A stretch of 64,000 nucleotides of DNA from a virus: IMG/VR virus record IMGVR_UViG_3300019886_000067, positions 1-64,000 of that record. One strand, given 5' to 3'. Within the stretch, counting starts at the first letter, position 1. Each line of letters begins with the position of its first letter. The position numbers and the translations under genes are program-made. The notes under the pieces are model-generated. The model was given only the letters and a program-made list of their open reading frames with translations, was not told the origin of the DNA and did not search any database. Shown in pieces: positions 9,403 through 63,490 of this stretch.

Positions 9403-10337
9403 GCCAACTAAATGACTTCATGCGACTGTTCTGCGGCCGTACAGACGCCTACGGCACAGGCAAGGGCCAGTGGATCAAGAAAGAGCCCACAGCGGCCGTC
9501 TACACTGAGCATCTTGCGGGCAAAGGCTACGGGCTCGGCATCGCGCCGTTGCTTGATGACGCCACGGTTCACTTCGCTGCCATCGACCTTGATGAGCCCG
9601 ACTTTGACGCTGCGCGTGAAATGCAGGAGTTCCTTAGCTTCGGCACGACTTGGGTTGAGGAAAGTCGCTCGGGTAACGCACACGTCTGGGCGTTCTTTGA
9701 GAAGCCTATTGAGGCGTGGATTACGCGCGGTGTGATGCGCGAAGCTACGGCCGCCATTGGTAAGCCCACAGTCGAGGTATTTCCGAAGCAAGATCGTTTG
9801 CTTGAGGGAATGGTGGGCAATTACATCAACCTGCCTTACCACGGCGACAAACGGCCGATGCTAACTCGCTCTGGCGACAATCCTTACAGCTTGCGTGGAT
9901 TCCTTAGCGCAGCTTTGGAGAAACTAAACTCGCCGGCCGATTGGCGTAAGCGCGCTGATTGGTTGATGGTCACGCCACCGGATCAGCGGAAGACAGAACG
10001 TCAAGATTTCGGCACAGGTAAAGAACTTCATATGTGTGCGGAGTGGATCATCGCTAATCGTGATGAGTGCCCAATAGCTGAAGGGCATCGTAACGTGGTG
10101 TACTTCAATCTGGCGAAGATGCTCAGCCACTACGAGGGATTCGACCATGAGGAGGCGTGGGATTTGCTCTGCATGGTCAGGGATAGCTCAGACGCCCAAG
10201 GGGTGGATCACGTTGCAAACACTGAGCTTCGAAGGATTTTGCGCAACGCAGAGCGCGGTGGATTTACGAGTACCGGCTGTGACGACCCACTCATGCAGCC
10301 GTACGTCCATCCCGACTGTCCTATAGCTCATGGGTAA
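9399..10337 (+). CDS. Archaeo-eukaryotic-type primase/polymerase
   Basis: Start chosen as TTG at 9399, overlapping the previous stop (TTGA), with GGAG upstream. The 312-aa protein has the AEP catalytic pattern: DLDEPDFD (about residues 65-72) supplies metal-binding Asp residues, SGNAHVW (about 92) the third motif, and EVFPKQD plus GNYINLPYH (about 130-147) match TOTE-type primases. A helical C-terminal part ends in a Cys/His-containing segment (CDDP...HPDCP). It should make primers for phage replication with the helicase and PolA-type polymerase nearby. Confidence 0.75.
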   Translation: MSQLNDFMRLFCGRTDAYGTGKGQWIKKEPTAAVYTEHLAGKGYGLGIAPLLDDATVHFAAIDLDEPDFDAAREMQEFLSFGTTWVEESRSGNAHVWAFFEKPIEAWITRGVMREATAAIGKPTVEVFPKQDRLLEGMVGNYINLPYHGDKRPMLTRSGDNPYSLRGFLSAALEKLNSPADWRKRADWLMVTPPDQRKTERQDFGTGKELHMCAEWIIANRDECPIAEGHRNVVYFNLAKMLSHYEGFDHEEAWDLLCMVRDSSDAQGVDHVANTELRRILRNAERGGFTSTGCDDPLMQPYVHPDCPIAHG

Positions 10338-48442: not shown

Positions 48443-48607
48443 TTAGTGCGCCGGCTTCTTACGTTTGTAGCCATCGACACGAACTACTGGCTTGCGCCTG
48501 CCTTTGGAATAGTTCGATCCACGGGGCGAACGAGTATGGCCCTTGACGCCAACTGCGTTTCCTGCACGCGGTGAGCGCTTACGTGGTGCGCGTCCCTTGG
48601 TAGCCAT
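48443..48607 (-). CDS. Small highly basic protein, 54 aa
   Basis: ATG overlaps the portal stop (TAATG), so it is translationally coupled to the portal gene. About 35 percent Lys/Arg with Gly and Pro (RAPRKRSPRAGNAVG). It may condense DNA inside the head or help capsid assembly. Function not shown. Confidence 0.6.
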   Translation of the reverse strand: MATKGRAPRKRSPRAGNAVGVKGHTRSPRGSNYSKGRRKPVVRVDGYKRKKPAH

Positions 48608-50913
48608 TAGGTCGCCACCGCTGGGACGAATGCTCTACGACAGCGCGGGTGCTCAAGCGGATTCTCGCGGGCCTGCTCAATCGTCCATAGCTGGCCGTCT
48701 GCCTCTGCGCAAGGCTCATCGCTGTCTGTACCGTCGCTCACCACCACATGAGTATAGCCAGAGCCCTCAGCAACCGCTAGCGTACCTTCGTTGTAGCCGC
48801 GCGTCGCCTCAGTCAGAGCTATGCCAGAAGCATCGCCCTCAACCCAATCGGCTACGGCCGCTTGGACCTCGGCCTGAATGTCCGCAAGCGTAGACTCGCT
48901 AGTGCGGTTGGCCTTCACAGCCTCGGCAATCTTCTTCTTGAATGTCGATGTGACCGCCTGGACGCCAGAGTCCTTGCGCGCCACAAGCTCATCTACGAGC
49001 GCTTCATAGTCGATTTCGCCGGCCGGCTTGAGGCCGATCTGAGCATGATGAATCGCTGCGGCCGACATCACGCGCAGCAGCGCTTTCTCGTAGGCTTCCG
49101 TGGCAAGTTCGTTGAAGCTCTTCCACGCCTCAGAGTTGCGCAGGCGAGAGACCACATCAGAAGCCTTGAATGCCTTGCCCTCCGCTGTATCTATAAGTCC
49201 ACGCTCAAGCACGCGCGCAGCCTTACCCAGATCGCTTTCGAAGTCAGACACGATGGCATCAACCTCTTCGACTCGCTTTCCTGCTAGCGCGTCTTCTGGG
49301 CGTACCTCACTATCAAGCTTTGGCCCCACACTGACTTTTGCCGGCTGTGTCAATGCCTTATGCTCAATCTCCTGCAAACGGCCAAGCACTTCATCAACAC
49401 TGAACGACCTTTTCGCCTTGCGGCTATGAATGTTGCCGTTCTTGCGGTTACTCAAACGCAAACTCTCAACTAGATCGTCTAGTGCCTTTTTGCCGGCGAT
49501 TGCCTTAGCGCCGGACGGAAGAGCCTTACCTGGCTTCGGAAAGGCTTTCGTGTTCGAGCGGTTAGGCGGACGCCCAGGCTCGCCCGGCAGGCCAGGATCA
49601 GGGAAACCCTGGCCTTCTGCTAGTTCGCCGCCTTCAGCCTCTTCGCCAGGCAGATTGAGTGTGATTTCGCCTATCTCTTTGTCAGGGTGCGGGCCAAGTC
49701 CGGCGAGCTTGCGAAGCTCGTCTACAATGATGCCCGGTAGTTGCCCAAACGAACCCGCCATGTGTGCCTGCTCTTCTGGTGATAGTTGATATTCATAGTC
49801 AATCGCGTATACTAGTCCCCAAGCCGCAACTAGTTCGGCCGTGATCTTCTTCTGAAGCTTGTTCATCAGCGGCCGTGCTGTCTTTGCGTCGAAGTGCTGT
49901 TGGGCTTCATGGAGCGGTTCAGTAGTCGCCTCGTCAGAGATTCCCAGGAGCTTCGGGTTCATACGGAACCACGAGAAGATACGATCACGGCTCATTTTCG
50001 AAAGCTCAGCAAACCCAGCATCCCCAGCATTCGGAGCAAACGAGTTGAGCTTTAGCCCAGCCTCAAGCACGAGAAGTTCTCCCGCATTTTTAGGACCGGC
50101 CGCACGAGCGCGTAGCTGAGCGCGAATCTTCTTGAATACATCCCTGGGGACGCGGCGCTCGGATTCAATAGCGACAGACGGCATCGCTTTGTTCTCCATA
50201 AACGAAGCCTGCGTATCTGTCAAAGCAATCTCAAGATCGGCTGCGCGGCCGGCACCTTGGATCAGGCCAACCCCGTAGTACGGATTCTCCGGGTCAGGGT
50301 TTCCCATTCGGAAATGAATGACATCCTTGGGTTCAATCGCCAACTTGTCAGCATTTGGAATTTGGTAGACGTATGCGGCTGGACCCCACGGCTTCGTGAC
50401 GACTTCAACGTACGGCGGAGCTAGACGGTAGAGCGCCAGAGGACGGCCGGCATCGTTGTTGCGCCACTTGAACCAATACGAGTTGCCTACCAGCAGCAAG
50501 TCCATCACAAGCAGTTCCATCATTTCGATGTAATCCATATACGGATTTGGCTTCTCAAGAAGCTGTGCCAAGCCTTCCGGCGGAGCTACAGGATCGCCAG
50601 GGACGCGAACCGGCGATAGAGGCGCAGGCTTCTCAAAGTGGTATTCGGCGCTGGCGACCGTATCTGCCACGAAGCGCGTGCAGTCCATGACCCAATCCAT
50701 CGCTTGGTTGCCGCCGTAGGCACTCAGGTAGCGGCCGGCTCCGCGCTGCGCGAGTCGTGGCCCTCCTGGGACCGCATCGTTCGGACTCTTGCCTGGGACC
50801 TTGCCGAGATTCAGGTCTGTGAGCCCAACCGGCCTTCCTGGGTCCATGAACGCAGGATGAGGCCCAAGGGCCTTTCCTTCTACCTGAATGCGCGCAAGCT
50901 CCTTCAAATCCAC
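48607..50913 (-). CDS. Portal protein fused to MuF-like head morphogenesis domain
   Basis: 768 aa, GTG start. The HK97-type portal domain (about 1-470) has VMDLLLVGNSYWFK, LYRLAPPYVEVV, DVIHFRMGNPDPENP and KLLGISD. A linker of about 100 disordered residues leads to a helical region, and residues 660-768 carry the MuF-type end ALTEATRGYNEG...HPRCRRAFVP. Such fusions join portal and minor head protein, usually separate genes. Leaderless-like start: TAAACT lies 7 nt upstream. Confidence 0.88.
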   Translation of the reverse strand: MDLKELARIQVEGKALGPHPAFMDPGRPVGLTDLNLGKVPGKSPNDAVPGGPRLAQRGAGRYLSAYGGNQAMDWVMDCTRFVADTVASAEYHFEKPAPLSPVRVPGDPVAPPEGLAQLLEKPNPYMDYIEMMELLVMDLLLVGNSYWFKWRNNDAGRPLALYRLAPPYVEVVTKPWGPAAYVYQIPNADKLAIEPKDVIHFRMGNPDPENPYYGVGLIQGAGRAADLEIALTDTQASFMENKAMPSVAIESERRVPRDVFKKIRAQLRARAAGPKNAGELLVLEAGLKLNSFAPNAGDAGFAELSKMSRDRIFSWFRMNPKLLGISDEATTEPLHEAQQHFDAKTARPLMNKLQKKITAELVAAWGLVYAIDYEYQLSPEEQAHMAGSFGQLPGIIVDELRKLAGLGPHPDKEIGEITLNLPGEEAEGGELAEGQGFPDPGLPGEPGRPPNRSNTKAFPKPGKALPSGAKAIAGKKALDDLVESLRLSNRKNGNIHSRKAKRSFSVDEVLGRLQEIEHKALTQPAKVSVGPKLDSEVRPEDALAGKRVEEVDAIVSDFESDLGKAARVLERGLIDTAEGKAFKASDVVSRLRNSEAWKSFNELATEAYEKALLRVMSAAAIHHAQIGLKPAGEIDYEALVDELVARKDSGVQAVTSTFKKKIAEAVKANRTSESTLADIQAEVQAAVADWVEGDASGIALTEATRGYNEGTLAVAEGSGYTHVVVSDGTDSDEPCAEADGQLWTIEQARENPLEHPRCRRAFVPAVAT

Positions 50914-52141: not shown

Positions 52142-52163
52142 CAAGCGGGGTGATTCCTACAAG

Positions 52164-52240
52164 TACGGCGAACGAGAATCGAACTCGCATTATCCACGCT
52201 GAGAACGTGGGGTCCTAGTCCTAGTTAGACGACCGCCGCG
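52164..52240 (-). tRNA. tRNA-Glu (CUC)
   Basis: Anticodon loop TTCTCAG gives CTC, reading GAG. T-arm GCGAG-TTCGATT-CTCGT, acceptor closed with one or two G-U pairs. No encoded CCA. Last gene of array 1 in transcription order. Confidence 0.85.
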
Positions 52241-52242
52241 TA

Positions 52243-52314
52243 TAGCAGACCGAGGATTCGCGCCTCGCTCCCAGGCTTATGAGGCCCGGATGGTCACTAG
52301 ACCACCTGTCTGCA
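52243..52314 (-). tRNA. tRNA-Met (CAU), initiator-like
   Basis: Anticodon loop CTCATAA. The acceptor stem has six pairs and a mismatch at position 1-72, the hallmark of bacterial initiators. The anticodon stem is GC-rich (CGGGC/GCCTG) and the T-loop is CGCGAAT instead of TTCGAAT. Likely an initiator-type tRNA, but elongator Met or Ile2 are possible. Confidence 0.7.
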
Positions 52315-52315
52315 A

Positions 52316-52387
52316 AGTCCCTGTCGGGATTCGAACCCGAACCATTCGCTTAGGAGGCAAACGCGCTATCCATTACGCCACAAGGAC
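52316..52387 (-). tRNA. tRNA-Arg (CCU)
   Basis: Loop CTCCTAA gives CCT, reading AGG. T-arm TCGGG-TTCGAAT-CCCGA, full acceptor stem, no CCA. Confidence 0.9.
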
Positions 52388-52390
52388 ATA

Positions 52391-52459
52391 TCTCCCTACT
52401 GAGAATCGAACTCAGCCTAACAGATTAGAAGTCCGCCGTCCCGATCCACGGGCAAGGAG
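52391..52459 (-). tRNA. tRNA-Arg (UCU)
   Basis: Loop CTTCTAA gives TCT, reading AGA. The D-loop is very short (about 5 nt), total about 69 nt. T-arm regular, no CCA. Confidence 0.8.
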
Positions 52460-52463
52460 TAAG

Positions 52464-52532
52464 TCCCAAGAGCAGGATTCGAACCTGCACCGCGCGGCTT
52501 ATGAGTCCGCCGTGTCACCTAGACATCCTGGG
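52464..52532 (-). tRNA. tRNA-Met (CAU), second copy
   Basis: Loop CTCATAA, full acceptor including a C1-G72 pair, so probably the elongator. It could be tRNA-Ile2 if the C is converted to lysidine. A/G mismatch at 31-39. Confidence 0.75.
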
Positions 52533-52537
52533 TAGAG

Positions 52538-52606
52538 CGGGGAAGCAACGAATCGAACGCTGGCCTGCGGGTTTGGAATCCGCTTGGTCTCCATGACCTC
52601 TTCCCC
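52538..52606 (-). tRNA. tRNA-Trp (CCA)
   Basis: Loop TTCCAAA gives CCA, reading UGG; discriminator G as usual for Trp. Acceptor GGGGAAG/CTTCCCC, no encoded 3' CCA. Confidence 0.85.
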
Positions 52607-52609
52607 TGG

Positions 52610-52653
52610 TTTCGTGTGCCCACCCACTATCGGGGGTAACACGACACACGAAA
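52610..52653 (-). ncRNA. Structured spacer in tRNA array 1
   Basis: TTTCGTGTG pairs with CACACGAAA (9 bp) with an inner CCC/GGG stem. It lies between tRNA-His and tRNA-Trp and is not part of either. It could guide processing of the array transcript. Confidence 0.45.
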
Positions 52654-52654
52654 G

Positions 52655-52729
52655 GGTGTCTGACGGGATTCGAACCCGCATCGAACCGGATCACAACCGG
52701 CGGACTTAACCACTTAGACCACAGACACC
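52655..52729 (-). tRNA. tRNA-His (GUG)
   Basis: Loop TTGTGAT gives GTG. The extra G at position -1 opposite discriminator C, required for His, is present. Confidence 0.9.
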
Positions 52730-52734
52730 GTGTA

Positions 52735-52803
52735 TCCCCTTACTGAGAGTCGAACTCAGCACTCAGGCTTCGGAGGCCCGAGACACGATCCGCGTGTAAG
52801 GAG
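52735..52803 (-). tRNA. tRNA-Arg (CCG)
   Basis: Loop CTCCGAA gives CCG, reading CGG. Similar in sequence to tRNA-Arg (UCU), with the same short D-arm. T-arm CTGAG-TTCGACT-CTCAG. No CCA. Confidence 0.85.
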
Positions 52804-52807
52804 TTGT

Positions 52808-52861
52808 CACTAGTGGGCTCGCGGGAAGCCCTTTATGAGGGACCTATCTCCCTCGCTAGTG
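52808..52861 (-). ncRNA. Three-way-junction RNA element in tRNA array 1
   Basis: CACTAG (52808) pairs with CTAGTG (52861) around two hairpins, GGGCT/AGCCC and GAGGGA/TCCCTC. This makes a compact three-way junction between tRNA-Asp and tRNA-Arg (CCG). No known family recognised. Confidence 0.55.
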
Positions 52862-52864
52862 TAG

Positions 52865-52939
52865 CGCTGATGATGGGACTCGAACCCACGACATTCCGCT
52901 CGACAGGCGGACGCTCTGACCAAACTGAGCTACATCAGC
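52865..52939 (-). tRNA. tRNA-Asp (GUC)
   Basis: Loop CTGTCGA, stem TCCGC/GCGGA, acceptor GCTGATG/CATCAGC, discriminator G. Regular cloverleaf. Confidence 0.92.
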
Positions 52940-52945
52940 GTAAAG

Positions 52946-53019
52946 CCTCCCCGACAGGATTCGAACCTGTAACCTCTGGTTTCGTAGACCAGCGCGCTAT
53001 CCAATTACGCTACGGAGAG
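52946..53019 (-). tRNA. tRNA-Arg (ACG)
   Basis: Loop CTACGAA, stem CTGGT/ACCAG. Reads CGU (and CGC, CGA if A34 becomes inosine, which needs the host deaminase). Discriminator G. Confidence 0.9.
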
Positions 53020-53022
53020 TTA

Positions 53023-53106
53023 TGCGAGTGGTGGGAGTCGAACCCACATGGCCCTTCGGCCGGCGCGGTTTGAACGCACTGCGTATCCCAATTCCACCAC
53101 ACTCGC
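53023..53106 (-). tRNA. tRNA-Leu (CAA)
   Basis: Class II tRNA with a long variable arm (GCCGGCCGAAGGGCC-type). Loop TTCAAAC gives CAA, reading UUG; discriminator A as usual for Leu. Confidence 0.88.
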
Positions 53107-53109
53107 GTA

Positions 53110-53192
53110 TACGTTCGGAGGGAGTCGAACCCTCAATCCCGATGGGCACTGGCTTCTAAGACCAGCGTGTATACCAATTCCACCACGAACGC
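53110..53192 (-). tRNA. tRNA-Leu (UAG)
   Basis: Long variable arm, loop CTTAGAA gives TAG. Acceptor GCGTTCG/CGAACGT, discriminator A. Confidence 0.9.
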
Positions 53193-53195
53193 TCA

Positions 53196-53278
53196 TGCGA
53201 TTGACAAGAGTCGAACTTGCACATTCCGAAGAACACTGCCTCCTCAAGGCAGGGCGTCTACCATTCCGCCACAATCGC
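53196..53278 (-). tRNA. tRNA-Leu (GAG)
   Basis: Long variable arm, loop TTGAGGA, stem CTGCC/GGCAG, acceptor GCGATTG/CAATCGC. Discriminator A. Confidence 0.9.
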
Positions 53279-53284
53279 TTAAAG

Positions 53285-53358
53285 TCAGGATGGCTGGATT
53301 TGAACCAGCGGCTTCCTCCGTCCGAGGGAGGCACGCTACCAGGCTGCGTCACATCCTG
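53285..53358 (-). tRNA. tRNA-Pro (CGG)
   Basis: Loop CTCGGAC, stem CCTCC/GGAGG, acceptor CAGGATG/CATCCTG, T-loop TTCAAAT. Discriminator A. Confidence 0.9.
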
Positions 53359-53363
53359 TTGAG

Positions 53364-53438
53364 TCGGGATAGAAGGATTTGAACCTTCGGCTTCACCGCC
53401 CCAAACGGCGCGCTCTGACCAGACTGAGCTATATCCCG
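53364..53438 (-). tRNA. tRNA-Pro (UGG)
   Basis: Loop TTTGGGG gives TGG. Acceptor CGGGATA/TATCCCG, T-arm GAAGG-TTCAAAT-CCTTC. Confidence 0.9.
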
Positions 53439-53444
53439 AAAAAG

Positions 53445-53517
53445 CTCTTGCGCTAGGATTCGAACCTAGACCTAACGGGTTAACAGCCCGTCGTGCTGCC
53501 GTTGACACCACGCAAGA
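53445..53517 (-). tRNA. tRNA-Asn (GUU)
   Basis: Loop CTGTTAA, stem ACGGG/CCCGT, acceptor TCTTGCG/CGCAAGA, discriminator G. Regular. Confidence 0.92.
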
Positions 53518-53523
53518 TCGAAG

Positions 53524-53595
53524 CTGGGGAGGTAGGATTCGAACCTACATCGGGCCGGGTCAGAGCCGTCCATCTTGCCATTAGACCACTCCCCA
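53524..53595 (-). tRNA. tRNA-Gln (CUG)
   Basis: Loop CTCTGAC gives CTG. Acceptor TGGGGAG/CTCCCCA with U1-A72 and discriminator G, both typical of Gln. Confidence 0.9.
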
Positions 53596-53600
53596 GGGTA

Positions 53601-53672
53601 ATGCGGAGGCTGGATTCGAACCAGCATCGAATGGGTTCAAGGCCCACCATCATGCCGTTAGACCACTCCGCA
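53601..53672 (-). tRNA. tRNA-Gln (UUG) with C33
   Basis: Stem GTGGG/CCCAT encloses CCTTGAA, anticodon TTG. Position 33, almost always U, is C here. U1-A72 matches the other tRNA-Gln. First gene of array 1 after the promoter at 53684. Confidence 0.8.
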
Positions 53673-53683
53673 GCAGAAAGAAC

Positions 53684-53689
53684 AACATA
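53684..53689 (-). promoter_or_regulatory. Promoter of tRNA array 1
   Basis: AGATGTGCTATGTT on the minus strand gives an extended -10 (TGC TATGTT) 12 nt before the first tRNA. The block AGATGTGCTA recurs at array 3 (60476) and TGCTA at array 2. Confidence 0.6.
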
Positions 53690-53712
53690 GCACATCTTCG
53701 TGCCAAAGGTCG

Positions 53713-53750
53713 GGTCGTCCGGTCCCAATTCGGGATGGAACCGGACGACC
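53713..53750. repeat. Long hairpin upstream of array 1
   Basis: GGTCGTCCGGT pairs with ACCGGACGACC across 16 nt. It lies in the 232-bp gap between array 1 and the CCA-adding enzyme gene, on the upstream side of the array promoter. A second, weaker GTGCG/CGCAC structure spans 53760-53798. Apart from promoters no gene is seen in this gap. Confidence 0.6.
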
Positions 53751-53869
53751 GTCGCAAGAGTGCGCTCTCTGGGCTAGCTCTCCAACCCTACGCGCACCAG
53801 GAACGCAACTAATGGGCTGTACGTGCTCTAGGCGTCTCTGCCGAAGACTGTAGCAGATTCTTTGCGGTG

Positions 53870-53898
53870 TTGCACGTCAAGCGAATCTGTGGTACGGT
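53870..53898 (+). promoter_or_regulatory. Leaderless promoter of the CCA-adding enzyme gene
   Basis: TTGCAC (53870-53875), 17-bp spacer ending TGTGG, TACGGT (53893-53898), then 6 nt to the ATG at 53905. No ribosome site, so translation is likely leaderless. Confidence 0.65.
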
Positions 53899-53904
53899 TC
53901 CCCC

Positions 53905-55347
53905 ATGAAGACAACTCCCGATCAGTTCATGGCGAGCCTTGGCTTGCCAGAGGTATATCGCGTTGGAGGTTCAGTCCGAGACGAAGTTCTCGGCCGGCGC
54001 TCCAAAGACTCCGACTATATGGTTCGGGGCTCCACGCTTAATGAGATTAGGTCGGCTGTCGGGCGCGCGGGTGCTAAGCCGAGCAAGCTCAAGCTACGCA
54101 CAGGTGTTGAGGTAGGTGTACGGGCCGCAGTCAAGGGGCTCGGCTTGCTTGAGATTGTTCTGCCGCGCACAGAGCGCTCAACTGGACCCGGCCGGCACGA
54201 TTTCGAGATTCATTGTTCGCCTGATATCCGACTTGAGGAAGATGCTCTTCGTCGTGACTTCAAAATGAATGCGATCTACCTCAACATCGCTTCTCAGCAC
54301 TATGTTGATCCGCTTGGTGGGCTTGATGATATAAAACGTAAACTCATCAACACCACACATGCTGATTCCTTCAAGGAAGACCCGCTTCGCACGCTTCGAG
54401 CGCTGCGTTTCTGTTCTACGTTGCCAGGATTTTGTCTGTCAGGAACTACACACAACCAAATGTGCGACCATGCGCCGGCCGTAACTGGTCTGACGACGAA
54501 AGGTGTCTCTGCTACCGCATTTGATGAGCTTTGCAAGCTGCTCATGGGCAGTCGGCCAAGCTTGGCGCTGGAATTGATGGCCGAAACAGGCGTTATGGCG
54601 GTTTTCCTGCCTGAGCTTGTGCCAATGCTTGACTTCGAGCAGCGTTCGCGCTACCACGAGAAGACAACAAGCAAGCACACGTTCGATGCTGTGCAGGCGG
54701 CGGCTAATATGCACCAACACGCGCCGCTTCGCGTACGTTTGGCACTACTTTTCCACGATTCCGGCAAGCCTTTGATGGCTTGGACAGGCGAGGACGGCCT
54801 TCAGCATTACTACGCGCTTGATCCAAAGCGAGCAGTAGAGCTAAATGCACCAATCGCCGCACTTGAATCACACGAGGCATGGGGCGTCAAGCAAGCGCAC
54901 GCTGCTCTAACGCGCCTTGGCGCTCCAAAGAAGCTACGCCAAGACGTTGAAACACTGATTGCGCGCCATATGTTGCCGCTGCATGAGAACTTTAGGCCGA
55001 TCAAGGTACGCAAGTTGCGTGCAGAGCTTGGCGACGAGCTTTTGCGTGACCTAATCACGCATCGGCTGGCTGATGTGCTCGGCAAGGGCGGTGACACAAC
55101 GGCCGCTGTAGAAGTTCTGACGTGGATTGCCAACGAGCAAGACAGGGCCATCGCCGGCCATGTGCCGCTAAGTCCGAAGGAACTTGATATAAGTGGCCGT
55201 GAACTTGTTGCGCTAGGTTTGAACGGCCGCGAAATCGGACGCGTGCAGAAGCAGCTACTACACGAGGTACTTGCTCAGCCTAAGCTCAACACAAACGAGT
55301 GGCTTGTCAATCGAGCCAAGGTCATACGCCACAAGGATATGAAATGA
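53905..55347 (+). CDS. cca: CCA-adding tRNA nucleotidyltransferase
   Basis: 480 aa. The nucleotidyltransferase head starts with YRVGGSVRDEVLGRRSKDSDY (G-G/S and DxD motifs, residues 18-38). EDALRRDFKMNAIYLN (about 111) and KEDPLRTLRALRF (about 154) are the conserved neck motifs. An HD domain (LLFHDSGKPL, about 282) follows, then a helical tail. It adds CCA to tRNA 3' ends and can repair them. This matters here because the phage tRNA genes do not encode CCA. Leaderless start; overlaps the next gene by ATGA. Confidence 0.9.
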   Translation: MKTTPDQFMASLGLPEVYRVGGSVRDEVLGRRSKDSDYMVRGSTLNEIRSAVGRAGAKPSKLKLRTGVEVGVRAAVKGLGLLEIVLPRTERSTGPGRHDFEIHCSPDIRLEEDALRRDFKMNAIYLNIASQHYVDPLGGLDDIKRKLINTTHADSFKEDPLRTLRALRFCSTLPGFCLSGTTHNQMCDHAPAVTGLTTKGVSATAFDELCKLLMGSRPSLALELMAETGVMAVFLPELVPMLDFEQRSRYHEKTTSKHTFDAVQAAANMHQHAPLRVRLALLFHDSGKPLMAWTGEDGLQHYYALDPKRAVELNAPIAALESHEAWGVKQAHAALTRLGAPKKLRQDVETLIARHMLPLHENFRPIKVRKLRAELGDELLRDLITHRLADVLGKGGDTTAAVEVLTWIANEQDRAIAGHVPLSPKELDISGRELVALGLNGREIGRVQKQLLHEVLAQPKLNTNEWLVNRAKVIRHKDMK

Positions 55348-55547
55348 GCGCTCCGATTTATCCTCCGTGGACGAAGAAGTACAAGCTAAGCTACCTTGGC
55401 TTCAATAACTACGAGGTAATAGAGGAGTCATCAAAAGACATACTCGCGGTCGGTCCTTTGGAGTATGGCGAGGCACAAGACATTGCTGATCGCGCCAATT
55501 CCGAACTCACAGCCGAACGTGTCAAGAACAGAAACAAGGCCAAATGA
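55344..55547 (+). CDS. Hypothetical protein, 67 aa
   Basis: ATG in ATGA with the CCA enzyme stop. Begins MSAPIYPPWTKKYKLSYLGF; beta then helix, with a Lys-rich end. Co-transcribed with cca. No family recognised. Confidence 0.55.
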   Translation: MSAPIYPPWTKKYKLSYLGFNNYEVIEESSKDILAVGPLEYGEAQDIADRANSELTAERVKNRNKAK

Positions 55548-55723
55548 TAAATCTGGCCTTTGTCTGCGCCGGCCTGCTGGGTGTTTTGATGTTCATGTGT
55601 CTCGCGCACGAACGCGAGCTTGAGCGTGAAGAGTGCCCACATCTTAATTGCCGCGAATTTGGAAGCTCCTACAATATCACTATCTGTTTTTGCCCAGATT
55701 GCGGAAAGGTAGACCTACTATGA
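55544..55723 (+). CDS. Small membrane-anchored zinc-ribbon protein, 59 aa
   Basis: ATG in ATGA. A hydrophobic N-terminus (LAFVCAGLLGVLMFMCLA) is followed by CPHLNC and CFCPDC, a likely zinc ribbon on the cytoplasmic or outer face. The stop overlaps the next ATG. Function unknown. Confidence 0.55.
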   Translation: MINLAFVCAGLLGVLMFMCLAHERELEREECPHLNCREFGSSYNITICFCPDCGKVDLL

Positions 55724-56163
55724 TCCTGCGTAACCAAGCCATATGTACGCTGTGTGGCGACCACATCAAGTCGATACACAAACATGATTTCAAATCTTGT
55801 TTATGTGGAGCGCTATCAGTTGACGGCGGCACTGAGTATCTGCGCCGGCTCGGCAACCCAGGAGAGTACAGAGACACGTCTATTTGTATTCCCGAGCAGC
55901 TTCCGATCAAGGAGGCCGCAAAGTATCTCGGCGTCGTAGTGGCGCTGGGAGATACGGCCGTTGCAGGAACTTCGTGGCTAGAAGGCCAGTTGATAGGTCA
56001 GTTCAAGACTAAGCCTTGGTTCAAGCCGCCGAAGGACAAACGACAACTACTCAAGTGGTGTCGGAAGCTCGTGGAATGGGAGTTGGTTGATGAGCTTACG
56101 ACTAAGGGCGACGCTCAGTGCTATTGGAAATCCAAAGTCGAGCTAGCTACTTGGACTGATTAA
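55720..56163 (+). CDS. DUF7695-like protein with zinc-binding N-terminus, 147 aa
   Basis: ATG in ATGA. The opening ICTLCGDHIKSIHKHDFKSC followed by CG and SVDGG matches a small phage domain annotated DUF7695, with Cys/His pairs fit for zinc. The C-terminal half is helical, with many Trp and Lys. Family function unknown. Confidence 0.6.
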   Translation: MILRNQAICTLCGDHIKSIHKHDFKSCLCGALSVDGGTEYLRRLGNPGEYRDTSICIPEQLPIKEAAKYLGVVVALGDTAVAGTSWLEGQLIGQFKTKPWFKPPKDKRQLLKWCRKLVEWELVDELTTKGDAQCYWKSKVELATWTD

Positions 56164-56165
56164 TT

Positions 56166-56230
56166 ATGCACGATCACGCAGATTAGATGATGTTCTCTTC
56201 GCCTAGAAGTAAATCTGCGTGATCGTGCAT
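56166..56230. terminator. 19-bp inverted repeat between convergent genes
   Basis: ATGCACGATCACGCAGATT and its exact complement enclose a 27-nt loop. It sits between the convergent genes at 55720 (plus) and 56236 (minus). No U tract. Likely a barrier to convergent transcription or an RNase processing hairpin. Confidence 0.7.
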
Positions 56231-56235
56231 ACGAC

Positions 56236-56556
56236 TTAGTTAGTCTTGGTGACTACTCCGCCTGCCTGGGATTCCTGGGCAGCCAGCGGCAAAGGAGTGG
56301 CCTGCGCTGCTGCTGGTGCAGCCGGCGGAAAAGTAAGTTTCGCAAGCTCATTCTCAGACGTGTCGATACGGCTCTTGACCGTATCTAGGTAGCTCTCAAG
56401 CTGAGCGCTCTGAGAAGCAAGCGCGGAAAGCTGAGAAGTCGCACGAACGAACTCTGCCTTATGTGACTCAAGAAGTTGCTCGGCTGCTGCAATCTTGTGA
56501 GCTACAGTGCCCGGCACAAGCTTCTCGACAAAGTTCAATGCGTCAGAGATATTCAT
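56236..56556 (-). CDS. Coiled-coil protein, 106 aa
   Basis: ATG start. A helical region with heptad pattern (VAHKIAAAEQLLESHKAEFV to about residue 70) is followed by an Ala/Pro-rich tail. It lies downstream of tRNA array 2 on the same strand. It resembles the coiled-coil protein at 23813 in outline. Function unknown. Confidence 0.6.
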   Translation of the reverse strand: MNISDALNFVEKLVPGTVAHKIAAAEQLLESHKAEFVRATSQLSALASQSAQLESYLDTVKSRIDTSENELAKLTFPPAAPAAAQATPLPLAAQESQAGGVVTKTN

Positions 56557-56610
56557 TGGTACAGTGCATCCTTCCCGTGGTTTTGTAGTAGGAGAAGGAT
56601 ACCATTAGAG

Positions 56611-56696
56611 CGGAAGGAGTGGGACTCGAACCCACACGCCGGCTCACGCCGACCTCAGCACTTTCCAGGCGCAGTACCGCTCCTTTGGGTCCTTCC
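56611..56696 (-). tRNA. tRNA-Ser (GGA) with reduced D-arm
   Basis: Loop CTGGAAA gives GGA. Long variable arm (GGTCGGC-GTGA-GCCGGC), acceptor GGAAGGA/TCCTTCC, discriminator G. The D-arm is shortened and pairs poorly; it may not form. Confidence 0.75.
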
Positions 56697-56704
56697 GAAA
56701 GAGA

Positions 56705-56775
56705 AGAGCACGGTTGGATTCGAACCAACGTGAGACGGGTTGCAACCGCCGGCTTCGCCCCTCAGCCACGCACTC
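56705..56775 (-). tRNA. tRNA-Cys (GCA)
   Basis: Loop TTGCAAC gives GCA. Discriminator U, needed for Cys. T-arm GTTGG-TTCGAAT-CCAAC. Confidence 0.88.
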
Positions 56776-56792
56776 ATAAGCGGGATGCACTT

Positions 56793-56843
56793 TGGCGCGC
56801 TCCCGAGTGCGCCTCGCTCTAGACGGCCGCAACCGACGAGCGA
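56793..56843 (-). ncRNA. Structured spacer in tRNA array 2
   Basis: GGCGCGCTC with GAGTGCGCC (one mismatch) and TCGCTC with GAGCGA form two hairpins between tRNA-Ser (GCU) and tRNA-Cys. Not part of either tRNA. Confidence 0.45.
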
Positions 56844-56850
56844 TACTAAG

Positions 56851-56939
56851 CGGTAGGTCAGGGATTCGAACCCTGGGAACACCATTAGATGTTCGCTGGT
56901 TTAGCAAACCAGTCCATTCGGCCGCTCTGGCAACCTACC
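56851..56939 (-). tRNA. tRNA-Ser (GCU)
   Basis: Long variable arm, loop TTGCTAA, stem CTGGT/ACCAG, acceptor GGTAGGT/ACCTACC, discriminator G. Confidence 0.92.
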
Positions 56940-56945
56940 GGAAAG

Positions 56946-57028
56946 CGGAGGGTAAGCGAATCGAACACTCACGCGGTTAGTCGTGCCCTGGGTTTCGAAT
57001 CCAGTTTGCCGCCTTGGCGGTACCCTCC
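56946..57028 (-). tRNA. tRNA-Ser (CGA)
   Basis: Loop TTCGAAA gives CGA, reading UCG. Long variable arm. Acceptor GGAGGGT/ACCCTCC, discriminator G. Confidence 0.88.
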
Positions 57029-57032
57029 GAAA

Positions 57033-57112
57033 TGGAAACGTGAGGAATCGAACCTCATAGTACGAGACAGCGGGGTTACAGCCCACTTGGCGGTCCCAGC
57101 GCCAACGTTTCC
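57033..57112 (-). tRNA. tRNA-Tyr (GUA)
   Basis: Loop CTGTAAC gives GTA. Medium-long variable arm as in bacterial tRNA-Tyr, acceptor GGAAACG/CGTTTCC, discriminator A. First gene of array 2. Confidence 0.9.
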
Positions 57113-58975: not shown

Positions 58976-59048
58976 TGCAACCTGTAGGAATCGAACCTAC
59001 GACGCCCGGCTTTTCAGGCCGGCGCTCTACCGTCTGAGCTAAGGTTGC
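58976..59048 (-). tRNA. tRNA-Phe (GAA)
   Basis: Loop CTGAAAA, stem CCGGC/GCCGG, acceptor GCAACCT/AGGTTGC, discriminator A. Confidence 0.92.
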
Positions 59049-59053
59049 TTGTA

Positions 59054-59125
59054 AGCGCGTGACGAGATTCGAACTCGTTCTTCTTGGTTGGAAGCCAAGT
59101 GTGCCGCCATGAACACTTCACACGC
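59054..59125 (-). tRNA. tRNA-Gly (UCC)
   Basis: Loop CTTCCAA, stem CTTGG/CCAAG, acceptor GCGTGTG/CACGCGC, discriminator U. Confidence 0.9.
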
Positions 59126-59128
59126 GAA

Positions 59129-59200
59129 AGGCCGGGCTCTCACCGGACTACAAGCGACCACGCTTGCCTTATGGGTCGGTACTTCCCGACAGTAACTTAA
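59129..59200 (-). ncRNA. Tandem hairpins in tRNA array 3
   Basis: Three hairpins in 70 nt: CCGG/CCGG, CAAGCG/CGCTTG and GTCGG/CCGAC, between tRNA-Thr (CGU) and tRNA-Gly. Not a tRNA. Possibly a processed small RNA or a spacer. Confidence 0.45.
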
Positions 59201-59272
59201 AGCTCTCACCGAGAATCGAACTCGATACTGACGATTACGAAACGTCCGTGTCACCAACAACACCTTGAGAGC
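59201..59272 (-). tRNA. tRNA-Thr (CGU)
   Basis: Loop TTCGTAA gives CGT. Acceptor GCTCTCA/TGAGAGC, T-arm TCGAG-TTCGATT-CTCGG, discriminator U. One mismatch at the top of the anticodon stem. Confidence 0.82.
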
Positions 59273-59275
59273 ACA

Positions 59276-59342
59276 AGCCCCATATCGGAATCGAACCGAT
59301 TCTAGCTGATTACAAAACAGCCGCCAGACCATCAGATAGGGC
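59276..59342 (-). tRNA. tRNA-Thr (UGU)
   Basis: Loop TTTGTAA gives TGT. About 67 nt, with a reduced D-arm. Acceptor GCCCTAT/ATGGGGC, discriminator U as in the other Thr tRNAs. Confidence 0.82.
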
Positions 59343-59431
59343 GTATCCACAGGCTGCCTACTTCTCCTGCTAAGAGGGTCGGCATTTAAAAGGATGTCCA
59401 AAGCAATAAGGACAAGCATTCACCTGTTAGA
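59343..59431 (-). ncRNA. Structured spacer in tRNA array 3
   Basis: CAGG (59350) and CCTG (59423) enclose GCC/GGC and TGTCC/GGACA hairpins, suggesting another multi-branched element between two Thr tRNAs. No T-arm, so not a tRNA. Low confidence in the exact fold. Confidence 0.35.
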
Positions 59432-59503
59432 AGCTGATGACGAGAGTCGAACTCGTAACCCCTCCCATACCAAGGGAGTGCTATACCGTTAAGCCACACC
59501 AGC
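59432..59503 (-). tRNA. tRNA-Thr (GGU)
   Basis: Loop TTGGTAT, stem CTCCC/GGGAG, acceptor GCTGGTG/CATCAGC, discriminator U. Confidence 0.9.
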
Positions 59504-59539
59504 GGGCGTGGCGCTCTAACCAGATTTGAGCTACACCCG
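59504..59539 (-). pseudogene. tRNA relic: acceptor stem plus D-arm
   Basis: On the minus strand GGGTGTAGCTCA begins a tRNA with a regular D-arm (TCTGGTTAGAGC), and ACGCCC follows at once and pairs with GGGTGT. Anticodon and T arms are gone. It looks like an internal deletion that kept the acceptor stem. Confidence 0.6.
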
Positions 59540-59580
59540 AGCAAAGCTCGCGCGGTGGGCTTCGATCCCACAACCTCCAC
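59540..59580 (-). pseudogene. tRNA relic: T-arm fragment
   Basis: GTGGG-ATCGAAG-CCCAC is a T-arm-like hairpin (loop close to TTCGAAT) with no matching anticodon arm. Probably the remains of a lost tRNA gene. Confidence 0.45.
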
Positions 59581-59584
59581 TAAG

Positions 59585-59657
59585 TACCCCCGCAAGGAAT
59601 CGAACCTTGTTCGCTGGCTTAAGAGGCCAGTGCTCATCCTGTTAAAGCTTCGGAGGC
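59585..59657 (-). tRNA. tRNA-Lys (CUU)
   Basis: Loop CTCTTAA, stem CTGGC/GCCAG, acceptor with two G-U pairs, discriminator A. Confidence 0.9.
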
Positions 59658-59663
59658 TTGTAG

Positions 59664-59755
59664 TGCGCCTGATGGGACTCGAACCCACATCCGTTGGTGT
59701 GAAAAACCAATGCTGGGGACAACTCAGTTGCCTCTACCATTTCAGCTACAGACGC
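59664..59755 (-). tRNA. tRNA-Glu (UUC) with insertion near the D-arm
   Basis: Stem TTGGT/ACCAA with loop TTTTCAC, the usual Glu loop, gives TTC. Acceptor GCGTCTG/CAGGCGC and T-arm GTGGG-TTCGAGT-CCCAT are regular. Total is about 92 nt: about 17-19 nt extra lies between the D-loop and the anticodon stem and can form a GGCAAC/GTTGTC hairpin. Confidence 0.75.
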
Positions 59756-59761
59756 TTAAAG

Positions 59762-59835
59762 TGCCCCCTCTGGGATTCGAACCCAGTTCTCACCGCTTAA
59801 AAGGCGGGGTTCTAACACACATGAACTAAGGAGGC
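59762..59835 (-). tRNA. tRNA-Lys (UUU)
   Basis: Loop CTTTTAA gives TTT. Acceptor GCCTCCT/AGGGGGC, T-arm CTGGG-TTCGAAT-CCCAG, discriminator A. Confidence 0.9.
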
Positions 59836-59840
59836 GTGCA

Positions 59841-59913
59841 AGCAACAGACGGGATTCGAACCCGCAACCTTCGACATGGCAAGCCGACGCACTACCGAAC
59901 GTGCTCCTGTTGC
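59841..59913 (-). tRNA. tRNA-Gly (GCC)
   Basis: Loop TTGCCAT gives GCC. Acceptor GCAACAG/CTGTTGC, discriminator U. Confidence 0.9.
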
Positions 59914-59918
59914 GTAAG

Positions 59919-59992
59919 TACGCCCCCAAGGATTTGAACCTTGAACCAACACCTTATAAGGATGCTGCTCTAACCAATTGAGCTAGAGGCGC
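59919..59992 (-). tRNA. tRNA-Ile (UAU)
   Basis: Loop CTTATAA gives TAT, reading AUA directly. This anticodon is rare in bacteria, where AUA is normally read by lysidine-modified CAU. Acceptor and T-arm regular, discriminator A. Confidence 0.85.
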
Positions 59993-59997
59993 GAGAG

Positions 59998-60072
59998 TGG
60001 ATCGAGAAGGATTTGAACCTTCGACAGTTCGCGTATCAGACGAATGCTCTAACCTGACTGAGCTACCGATCC
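59998..60072 (-). tRNA. tRNA-Ile (GAU)
   Basis: Loop CTGATAC, stem TTCGT/GCGAA, acceptor GGATCGG/TCGATCC, discriminator A. Confidence 0.9.
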
Positions 60073-60077
60073 ATGAG

Positions 60078-60151
60078 TGGACAATCTCGGACTCGAACCG
60101 AGGACTTCCGCCTTGTAAAAGCGGCGCTCTAACCAACTGAGCTAATCGTCC
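60078..60151 (-). tRNA. tRNA-Val (UAC)
   Basis: Loop TTTACAA gives TAC. T-arm CTCGG-TTCGAGT-CCGAG, discriminator A. Confidence 0.9.
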
Positions 60152-60155
60152 ATAA

Positions 60156-60224
60156 ACGGGAAGGCTGGACTCGGACCAGCATCTACCGGCCCCACGCCGG
60201 CCGCTCTAATTGAGCTACCTCCCT
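60156..60224 (-). tRNA. tRNA-Pro-like, anticodon uncertain (UGG or GGG)
   Basis: GCCGG/CCGGT encloses CGTGGGG. With a standard 7-nt loop the anticodon would be TGG and position 33 a G; by similarity to the Pro loop NTGGGGN it would be GGG. The D-loop is very short and the 1-72 pair is A-G. T-loop TCCGAGT. May be degenerate. Confidence 0.55.
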
Positions 60225-60226
60225 AG

Positions 60227-60299
60227 TGGTCAATGCTGGACTCGAACCAGCGACTTCGGCGATGTCACCGCCGCGCTCTCCCAACTGAGCTAATCGACC
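60227..60299 (-). tRNA. tRNA-Val (GAC)
   Basis: Loop GTGACAT, stem CGGCG/CGCCG, acceptor GGTCGAT/ATTGACC, discriminator A. Confidence 0.9.
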
Positions 60300-60305
60300 A
60301 AGAAG

Positions 60306-60378
60306 TGGAGAAGATGGGATTCGAACCCACGACATCCTGCTTGCAAAACAGGCGCTCTACCAACTGAGCTACATCCCC
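60306..60378 (-). tRNA. tRNA-Ala (UGC)
   Basis: Loop TTTGCAA gives TGC; T-arm GTGGG-TTCGAAT-CCCAT; discriminator A. The Ala identity pair G3-U70 is present (GGG.../...UCC). First gene of array 3. Confidence 0.9.
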
Positions 60379-62617: not shown

Positions 62618-62655
62618 TCACCAATTCTGCCACAGCAACCGGCTTTCAGCCGTGC

Positions 62656-62704
62656 GACAATATCGTCACATACGCCCGATTCGAACGAATGTGACGATAT
62701 TGTC
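62656..62704 (-). terminator. Inverted repeat directly 3' of the RNase P RNA
   Basis: GACAATATCGTCACAT and its exact complement (16 bp) enclose a 17-nt loop. On the minus strand it starts 6 nt after the RNase P RNA end. It may terminate or define the 3' end of that RNA. No strong U tract. Confidence 0.6.
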
Positions 62705-62710
62705 ACAAAT

Positions 62711-63065
62711 GGGGTCCAGCCTGTAGCCGGGGTTCTGTTCCCAGGACGACAAACCCCTGGGCGACCACGATCTTTCTTACCGGGCTGACTAATTCCCGGC
62801 AGCCGTCCTATGACGTGCCGCTCCAAACCTTGATCGCCCCCGCTATGCTTCGGGCGTCTGTTCTTGGATCGCACCCAGCCTTGGCAACTCGCGCGTGCGC
62901 GCGTCTCGCGGTTCAAGCGTCCCGTGCTACTGTCCGCATCGCTCTCGCAACTTGGCCCCAACAAGGACTCCCGCCGGCCGGTGACGACGAGGTTAGCCCT
63001 CGTCGGGGTGCCCCGAACTTCCTCTCGCGTCCTTCAACCGCGAGCCGCAGTCCGGCTGGCCCACT
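62711..63065 (-). ncRNA. rnpB: RNase P RNA (bacterial type A-like)
   Basis: On the minus strand all landmarks of RNase P RNA appear in order. P1: GGGCCAGCC at the 5' end pairs with GGCTGGACCC at the 3' end. P3: hairpin CTCGCG/CGCGAG. CR-I GAGGAAGTTCGGGG (63011-63024), CR-II ACAGTAGCA (62925-62933), CR-IV AGAAAGATCGTGG, and CR-V ACAGAACCCCGGCT (62725-62738). CR-I CGGGG pairs with CR-V CCCCG to form P4, the catalytic helix. Length about 355 nt is normal. It would remove 5' leaders from pre-tRNAs, including those of the phage arrays. No rnpA gene was seen. Confidence 0.85.
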
Positions 63066-63068
63066 AAA

Positions 63069-63180
63069 ACGAAGAGAGGGATTCGAGCCCTCTACTGCCA
63101 ACATCGCAGCCACCATACCTTGCTCCGCTCCGAAGGTTTCTGTACTTGGAGTCGTTAGACGATAATCCGTGTTGAAACCT
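63069..63180 (-). other. RNase P RNA upstream region with tRNA T-arm-like hairpin
   Basis: GAGGG-CTCGAAT-CCCTC, close to a T-arm, lies just 5' of rnpB, without recognisable anticodon or D arms. Nothing else was identified in this stretch. It may be a tRNA relic or part of the rnpB leader. Confidence 0.35.
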
Positions 63181-63183
63181 ACA

Positions 63184-63240
63184 AACATGGAGAAGGAGGG
63201 ATTCGAACCCTCGTCTTACCGCTGCGCCATTAGCGCGTTA
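63184..63240 (-). pseudogene. Truncated tRNA relic
   Basis: GAGGG-TTCGAAT-CCCTC followed by CTTCTCC-A is a full T-arm and 3' acceptor. Upstream GGCGCAGCGGTAAGAC looks like a D-arm, but the anticodon arm and the 5' acceptor strand are missing. A tRNA that has lost its middle and 5' end. Confidence 0.5.
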
Positions 63241-63281
63241 CACGGCAATCGACACCAAGCCTTCCCCGTCTTCAAACCATA

Positions 63282-63461: not shown

Positions 63462-63490
63462 ACCCTAGCAAACCCAGGGAAGCTTGTCAA
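63462..63490 (-). promoter_or_regulatory. Strong sigma-70-like leaderless promoter
   Basis: On the minus strand TTGACA (63485-63490), a 17-bp spacer and TAGGGT (63462-63467), identical in both boxes to the promoter at 2439. The ATG at 63455 starts 6 nt after the -10 box. It may also drive rnpB downstream. Confidence 0.75.

What the first reader, a model, noticed from the sequence alone, without database searches (positions are those of the whole stretch)
62711..63065. A phage-encoded RNase P RNA
The minus strand of this stretch carries the complete set of conserved RNase P RNA blocks in the right order and spacing. CR-I GAGGAAGTTCGGGG and CR-V ACAGAACCCCGGCT can pair to form P4 with changes that keep the pairing, and P1 is closed by the two ends. 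Phages with many tRNAs normally rely on the host's RNase P. A phage-borne copy suggests the phage matures its own tRNAs, or keeps working when host RNase P is limiting.
Basis: partly seen in the sequence, partly recalled or inferred. Interest (0 to 1): 0.9.

Follow-up and report, generated by a model that had tools for sequence, protein, structure and literature searches.

The report
Phage-encoded RNase P RNA family
A bacterial virus that carries tRNAs for all 20 amino acids also carries its own divergent copy of the RNA enzyme that trims tRNA precursors, and so do about twenty other tRNA-rich viral contigs, which suggests that some phages mature their own tRNAs rather than relying wholly on the host's enzyme.

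Summary
The finding is real. The minus strand of 62711-63062 holds a full-length, divergent class-A-like RNase P RNA. Rfam RF00010 aligns end to end but scores only 19 bits, against a gathering score of 100. A profile built only from relatives finds it at E=3e-25 (83 bits; next best hit 4 bits). It lies in an 80-kb tailed-phage contig with 33 tRNAs covering all 20 amino acids, none with an encoded CCA, and a CCA-adding enzyme. No RnpA gene was found. Searches of public viral contigs gave about 19 more tRNA-rich carriers of 5.7-463 kb. Two carry the window's unusual P4 and still score 191 and 255 bits. None of the 20 has RnpA, and 13 have a CCA-adding enzyme. Most share a "phage P4": three compensatory base-pair changes against the near-invariant bacterial helix, with bulged U69 kept. 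In 84,980 prokaryotic genomes the exact signature occurs once, in a small contig whose RNA closely matches a phage RNA. The window RNA and its nearest relatives lack a recognisable canonical specificity domain, so "complete set of blocks" was overstated. Most likely it is a catalytic RNA that uses host RnpA to mature phage tRNAs. No paper describing this was found. Catalysis is untested.

The parts
62711..63062 (-). RNase P RNA (class-A-like, divergent), P1 to P1
   Evidence: RF00010 full-length 19.1 bits; HMM of relatives without window E=3.1e-25
63054..63062 (-). P1 5' strand GGGCCAGCC
   Evidence: pairs with 62721-62711 with one bulged A
62711..62721 (-). P1 3' strand GGCTGGACCCC
63046..63052 (-). 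P2 5' strand GACTGCG
   Evidence: 7/7 pairs with CGTGGTC 62769-62763; P2 is 7 bp in nearly all relatives where it could be assigned
62763..62769 (-). P2 3' strand CGTGGTC
63024..63044 (-). P3 hairpin CTCGCG...CGCGAG
63011..63024 (-). CR-I GAGGAAGUUCGGGG: J3/4 and P4 5' strand AGU(U)CGGGG with bulged U69
   Evidence: same letters in most phage relatives
62724..62738 (-). CR-V ACAGAACCCCGGCUA: J2/4 and P4 3' strand CCCCGGCU (62732-62725)
   Evidence: compensatory to CR-I against the bacterial consensus
63006..63010 (-). P5 5' strand CACCC, pairs with GGGTG 62876-62872
   Evidence: direct reading of the sequence; covaries with CAUCC/GGAUG and CUGC/GCAG in relatives
62877..63005 (-). Specificity-domain region, not canonical: P8-like hairpin 63005-62985, then GGCCGGCGGGAG and variable stems; no CR-II/CR-III
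   Evidence: Infernal skips this part; same layout in G016, G023, G049
62859..62873 (-). CR-IV-like GCGATCCAAGAACAG (bacterial GCAAGGCCAAATAG)
   Evidence: RF00010 alignment; nearly the same in G049
62820..62831 (-). L15-like AAGGTTTGGAGC with the GGU that reads the tRNA 3' CCA in class A RNAs
   Evidence: RF00010 alignment GGU; AAGGTAGGGAGC in G049
62740..62761 (-). Extra hairpin between P2 and CR-V (P19-like) CCCAGG...CCTGGG
   Evidence: similar hairpins in G003, G004, G016, L090, L094
62653..62707 (-). Near-perfect inverted repeat (about 19-bp arms, each itself palindromic) 3 nt after P1; possible terminator or operator
63462..63490 (-). Promoter-like TTGACA-17-TAGGGT upstream of the RNA cluster (weak -10)
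   Evidence: direct reading; not accepted by the consensus scan; relative G010 has TTGACA-17-TAGAGT at the matching place
58976..60378 (-). tRNA array 1 (Ala, Val, Val, Ile, Ile, Gly, Lys, Thr, Lys, Thr, Thr, Gly, Phe), downstream of the RNase P RNA on the same strand
   Evidence: similar order directly behind the RNase P RNA in G010
52163..57112 (-). tRNA array 2; with array 1, 33 tRNAs covering all 20 amino acids, none with an encoded CCA end
53905..55347 (+). CCA-adding enzyme (tRNA nucleotidyltransferase)
   Evidence: phrog_2244 E=6.7e-59, PF01743 E=2.2e-18

Best explanation
The stretch encodes a functional, phage-borne RNase P RNA. Proposed mechanism: (1) the minus strand is transcribed through the RNA and the tRNA arrays during infection (inferred). 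(2) The RNA folds into the class A catalytic core P1-P2-P3-P4-P5-P15 with the bulged U in P4; sequence and covariation support this fold. (3) It binds the host's RnpA protein, because the phage has no recognisable one (absence shown, use of host RnpA inferred). (4) It cleaves the 5' leaders and short spacers of the tandem phage pre-tRNAs (inferred). (5) The phage CCA-adding enzyme finishes the 3' ends, which lack encoded CCA (gene shown, activity inferred). The phage thus carries the RNA catalyst for the 5' end and the enzyme for the 3' end of its tRNAs.
For: Full-length RF00010 alignment. Profile from relatives without the window: E=3.1e-25, shuffles at most 8.1 bits. Relatives of the same phage group (capsid protein 60-62% identical, or same tRNA order) carry the RNA: G010 56.9 bits, G015/G016/G023 27-28 bits, G049 54 bits. 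Other viral contigs carry it above the Rfam threshold with the same P4: G050 (300 kb) 255 bits, G048 (168 kb) 191 bits. P4 shows three compensatory pair changes against the bacterial consensus (67-359, 68-358, 71-356) with U69 kept, plus further covariation in L094 (71-356 G-C) and L096 (71-356 A-U, 74-353 A-U), found by a search that did not use P4. All 16 carriers tested have 10-69 tRNAs; 13 of 20 have a CCA-adding enzyme. In G010 the RNA sits directly in front of the tRNA-Ala array.
Against: The window RNA itself is far below the RF00010 gathering score. Its canonical specificity domain, which grips the T-loop of pre-tRNA, is not recognisable, so substrate binding must differ or be weaker. 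No expression or cleavage data. No RnpA in any carrier, so activity depends on a heterologous protein. The P1, P2, P3 and P5 arms were chosen by eye, so their 100% pairing is partly by construction.
Confidence: 0.8

Rival explanations
1. The RNA is a decoy: an RNase P RNA mimic that binds host RnpA (or pre-tRNA) and lowers host RNase P activity, helping takeover, without being a good catalyst itself.
For: No phage RnpA, so the RNA must share or sequester the host protein; the specificity domain is eroded in the window group.
Against: The catalytic helix P4 with its bulged U is the best-conserved part and is kept by compensatory changes, as is the J2/4 ACAGAA block; a decoy for RnpA need not keep the active site. 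It would also harm the phage's own tRNAs, which need 5' processing.
Confidence: 0.1
2. It is a decaying, non-functional copy of a host rnpB captured by the phage.
For: Low RF00010 score and missing CR-II/CR-III in the window; L096 holds a second, broken copy beside a short complete one.
Against: Decay does not produce matched changes on both strands of P4, P1, P2 and P5 across about 15 contigs, nor keep a position beside a tRNA array in diverged relatives. G048 and G050 keep an almost canonical RNA.
Confidence: 0.05
3. It is an RNase P-derived RNA with a different main substrate or role, for example processing of tmRNA-like RNAs or phage mRNAs, tRNA maturation being secondary.
For: In the window an 83-nt tRNA-like RNA and a second T-arm-like element lie just upstream; G003 and G048 have tmRNA genes near the RNase P RNA; the specificity domain is altered.
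Against: The constant association is with tRNA genes: 16/16 records tested. The tmRNA model also scores ordinary tRNAs at up to 41 bits.
Confidence: 0.05

Closest known systems
Bacterial RNase P RNA class A (Rfam RF00010, rnpB, M1 RNA)
   Same: Order P1-P2-P3-CR-I-P5-...-P15-CR-V, P4 formed by CR-I and CR-V with a bulged U, GAGGAA and ACAGAA blocks, GGU in L15; two phage relatives with the same P4 score 191 and 255 bits.
   Different: Encoded by a phage beside tRNA arrays without rnpA. P4 carries three base-pair replacements (G67-C359, U68-G358, G71-C356) that the exact search found in only one contig of 84,980 prokaryote genomes. The window group and the G001-G004 group lack recognisable CR-II/CR-III.
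Divergent RNase P RNAs of CPR bacteria and RNAs without P12 in Thermoproteaceae (PMC8172020)
   Same: Score below Rfam thresholds, lost or altered specificity-domain helices such as P12, catalytic core kept.
   Different: Those are the only RNase P RNA of a cell; here the RNA is viral and additional to the host's. P4 differs.
Phage tRNA arrays processed by host RNase P, as in T4 (PMC11143913)
   Same: Tandem tRNA precursors with short spacers and no encoded CCA.
   Different: T4-type phages depend on the host enzyme; these phages carry the catalytic RNA, and many a CCA-adding enzyme.

Membership tests
Bacterial RNase P RNA, class A (RF00010) | Covariance-model score at or above the gathering score of 100 bits | tested here: not met
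   Window 19.1 bits, though full-length 1-367. Relatives with the same P4 reach 191 and 255 bits.
RNase P RNA (universal core) | P4 helix between CR-I and CR-V with a bulged uridine, kept by covariation | tested here: met
   8/8 pairs in the window; of 15 phage RNAs counted 14 pair 8/8 and one 7/7; pair changes on both sides at 4 of 8 pairs.
RNase P RNA (universal core) | P1 closes the ends; P2 and P3 in the canonical order around CR-I and CR-V | tested here: met
   arms chosen from constrained folds, so partly by construction.
Bacterial RNase P RNA, class A (RF00010) | Specificity domain with CR-II/CR-III (P7-P12 with the T-loop motifs) | tested here: not met
   Not aligned in the window or G049; present in G050.
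Bacterial RNase P RNA, class A (RF00010) | GGU in L15 that pairs with the tRNA 3' end | tested here: inconclusive
   GGU aligned at 62829-62827 within AAGGTTTGGAGC; P15 itself not resolved.
RNase P holoenzyme | Protein subunit RnpA encoded with the RNA | tested here: not met
   PF00825: 0 of 20 carriers over the cut-off, control 10 of 14 genomes. The host protein would have to serve.
RNase P | Cleavage of pre-tRNA 5' leaders | not testable with these tools
   Needs an in vitro or in vivo assay.

The most novel reading that the evidence does not exclude
Phages carry a distinct lineage of RNase P RNA marked by a re-written active-site helix P4 (AGU-U-CGGGG : CCCCGGCU) that is shared by RNAs with quite different specificity domains (canonical in G050 and G048, rebuilt in the window and G001-G004 groups) and essentially absent from cellular genomes. 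The shared signature would mean that the RNA is old in phages or is passed between them, and that P4 was changed for a reason particular to infection, for example to stay active while host RNase P RNA is attacked, inhibited or outcompeted, or to avoid an agent that reads the invariant bacterial P4. The RNA, the tRNA arrays and the CCA-adding enzyme would form a phage tRNA-maturation kit that only borrows the host's RnpA.
Probability: 0.35. Interest if true: 0.95.

Novelty: new variant of a known kind. Interest (0 to 1): 0.87.

Why it matters
RNase P RNA is one of the few ribozymes found in nearly all cells; a virus carrying its own would add a ribozyme to the phage translation toolkit and extend phage self-sufficiency to tRNA 5' maturation. 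The phage RNAs are natural experiments on the ribozyme: compensatory changes in a helix that hardly varies in bacteria, and specificity domains that are rebuilt or reduced (one relative spans only about 200 nt). They give directly testable questions: can P4 be rewritten without losing activity, can a class A core work without CR-II/CR-III, and why do phages with full tRNA sets not rely on the host enzyme.

Tried and rejected
Chance resemblance: rejected and by the 32 of 36 capsid relatives with no RF00010 hit at E<=1 (many of them short fragments, so this is a weak control). Host contamination: rejected, because the contig carries TerL, capsid, portal and protease genes and a tRNA array in an order close to that of relatives. 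First reading of P4 as shifted by one base with a deletion and an insertion: replaced by three in-register compensatory pair changes, because CR-I and CR-V keep their lengths. Relatives among isolated phages: blastn found none of the phage type in 50,697 INPHARED records. With a canonical-type RNA the hits were a Salmonella genome, two Acinetobacter phage MD-2021a records not followed up, an unannotated gut contig, and 'Microcystis phage MaAM05', whose flanks (fabI, engB, glyS) look bacterial; not counted. E. coli-like rnpB copies in IMG/VR contigs (330-334 bits) were treated as cellular contamination. CCA-adding enzyme as a bait in viral contigs found nothing. A full-length covariance model of the phage RNAs was not attempted, because calibration is limited to shorter models. 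Literature searches for phage or viral RNase P RNA found no report; the library holds open-access papers only.

Full report
WHAT IS THERE. The minus strand of 62711-63062 carries CR-I GAGGAAGTTCGGGG (63024-63011) and CR-V ACAGAACCCCGGCTA (62738-62724). Rfam RF00010 aligns over its whole length (1-367) to 62708-63063 at 19.1 bits, E=0.001 in a 1.1-kb search and 1.8e-5 for the whole 80,397-bp virus record, against a gathering score of 100. To test it without circularity I built a profile from four relatives (G010, G016, G023, G049) with the window left out: it finds 63077-62724 at 83.2 bits, E=3.1e-25. The next place in the window has 4.1 bits, and 20 shuffled windows reach at most 8.1 bits. The RNA is real.

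ANATOMY. With CR-I and CR-V held unpaired, the folds show P1, P2 and P3 in the canonical order in most relatives. In the window, P1 pairs GGGCCAGCC with GGCUGGACCCC (one bulged A), P2 pairs GACUGCG with CGUGGUC, P3 pairs CUCGCG with CGCGAG, and P5 pairs CACCC with GGGUG. A CR-IV-like GCGAUCCAAGAACAG and an L15-like AAGGUUUGGAGC with GGU follow, then an extra hairpin between P2 and CR-V. CR-II and CR-III of the specificity domain are not there: Infernal skips that part, which instead holds an 8-bp hairpin, GGCCGGCGGGAG and variable stems. The same layout is seen in the relatives G016, G023 and G049. So 'complete set of blocks' is too strong; 'complete catalytic core' is fair.

THE P4 SIGNATURE. 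Bacterial CR-I/CR-V, GAGGAA-AGUCCGGG-C and ACAGAA-CCCGGCUU-A, are almost all upper case (strongly conserved) in the RF00010 consensus. The window has GAGGAA-GUUCGGGG-C and ACAGAA-CCCCGGCU-A. Lengths are equal. Read in register, three pairs change on both sides: A67-U359 to G-C, G68-C358 to U-G, C71-G356 to G-C, with the bulged U69 in place (E. coli numbering from my own knowledge). These RNAs share the signature: G001, G002, G003, G004, G015, G016, G023, G048, G049, G050 and contig L090. Most were found by patterns that required it. A further search by a motif outside P4 gave four more: L093 with the same P4, L095 with it except an A-A at the terminal pair, L096 with A-U at 71-356 and at 74-353, and L094 with bacterial pairs at 67 and 68 but G-C at 71-356. 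That is the pattern expected of a helix under selection for pairing. G050 (300 kb) and G048 (168 kb) score 255 and 191 bits on RF00010, so RNAs with this P4 can be RNase P RNAs beyond reasonable doubt. In 84,980 prokaryotic genomes the exact signature (spacing 226-286) occurs once, in a 12.7-kb contig of a Nitrososphaerales MAG; its RNA closely resembles that of G003, so it is probably phage DNA, although its proteins gave no phage-family hit.

PHAGE CONTEXT. The window has TerL (22229-23680), capsid (41591-42979), protease, portal (48607-50913), family A DNA polymerase and SNF2-type helicase genes, 33 tRNAs for all 20 amino acids, none with an encoded CCA end, and a CCA-adding enzyme at 53905-55347. 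In G010, a phage with 62% capsid identity, an RNase P RNA with bacterial-type P4 (56.9 bits) stands directly in front of the array Ala-Val-Val-Gly-Ile-Lys, with a TTGACA-17-TAGAGT promoter-like site upstream. G049 has a similar array order. Two capsid relatives without a hit, G013 and G014, appear to be fragments ending before the locus, to judge by capsid position and length. Canonical-P4 RNase P RNAs also sit inside tRNA arrays of G041 (463 kb), G042 and G043 and beside tRNAs in G044 (182-253 bits). Sixteen of 16 carriers tested have 10-69 tRNAs. Thirteen of 20 have a CCA-adding enzyme. None of 20 has RnpA over the cut-off, while 10 of 14 control genomes do. TerL (phrog_2) is seen in 9 of 16, TerL PF03237 also in G052, and portal genes in G001 and G044. 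G002, G003, G042, G043, G051, G053 and G054 rest on IMG/VR's classification and on their RNA content; the capsid match places G010.

HOW IT MOST LIKELY WORKS. Shown: the gene, the core fold with compensatory changes, the association with tRNA arrays and CCA-adding enzymes, and the absence of RnpA. Inferred: the RNA is transcribed, binds host RnpA, cuts phage pre-tRNAs at +1, and the phage enzyme then adds CCA. The conserved catalytic helix argues against a decoy or a decaying copy; the altered specificity domain leaves open how substrates are held.

NOVELTY. Eight literature searches found no report of an RNase P RNA in a phage; only open-access papers are held, so this is not proof. Divergent RNase P RNAs that fall below Rfam thresholds and lack specificity-domain helices are known in CPR bacteria and Thermoproteaceae (PMC8172020), which supports reading a low score as divergence. 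I call it a new variant of a known kind: a viral branch of RNase P RNA with its own P4.

LIMITS. Carriers are metagenomic contigs, mostly fragments; hosts are unknown. Helix arms were picked by eye except P4, which is fixed by the conserved blocks. No expression or activity data.

Noticed in passing
window 63185-63267 (-): An 83-nt tRNA-like RNA just upstream of the RNase P RNA that neither ARAGORN nor RF00005 (gathering) calls as a tRNA: acceptor GGGGAAG:CUUCUCC with a G3-U70 pair (alanine identity), T arm, and a tmRNA-like 5' part; RF00023 44.6 bits with the tag region missing. G010 has a similar 60-nt RNA at about L079:1440-1500. The tmRNA model also scores ordinary tRNAs at up to 41 bits, so a tagless mini-tmRNA is only a lead.
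   Followed up: partly
window 62653-62707: Near-perfect inverted repeat (TGTGACAATATCGTCACAT / ATGTGACGATATTGTCGCA), each arm also palindromic, right behind the RNase P RNA; the only such site in the window. Possible operator or terminator without a T run.
   Followed up: partly
window 63067-63149 (-): A second T-arm-like element (GAGGGCTCGAATCCCTC) between the tRNA-like RNA and the RNase P RNA; no full tRNA recognised.
   Followed up: no
L061/L077 (G041, 463 kb), L063/L076 (G042), L070/L078 (G043), L075 (G044): Canonical-type RNase P RNAs of 182-253 bits inside or beside tRNA arrays of large viral contigs, tRNA-Cys just before and tRNA-Gly just after in three of them.
   Followed up: partly
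L096 (G054), about positions 4900-5450, minus strand: Two RNase P RNA copies in tandem: a broken one of the G001-G004 type and a complete one of only about 200 nt whose P4 covaries.
   Followed up: partly
L006:2272-2620 (G003) and L084:10443-10753 (G048): tmRNA genes near the phage RNase P RNA; the G003 one fits the permuted or betaproteobacterial tmRNA models best.
   Followed up: no
MW495066.1 (Microcystis phage MaAM05): Record deposited as a 274-kb phage carries fabI, engB, glyS and an RNase P RNA fragment match; it looks like bacterial chromosome.
   Followed up: no
L090 (JANWKP010000389.1): Contig binned in a Nitrososphaerales archaeon MAG carries the phage-type RNase P RNA; probably a misbinned phage contig.
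   Followed up: partly
window 9390-10337 (+): Protein with an archaeo-eukaryotic primase domain of the TOTE conflict-system type (PF22548, E=1.1e-19), next to helicase and polymerase genes.
   Followed up: no
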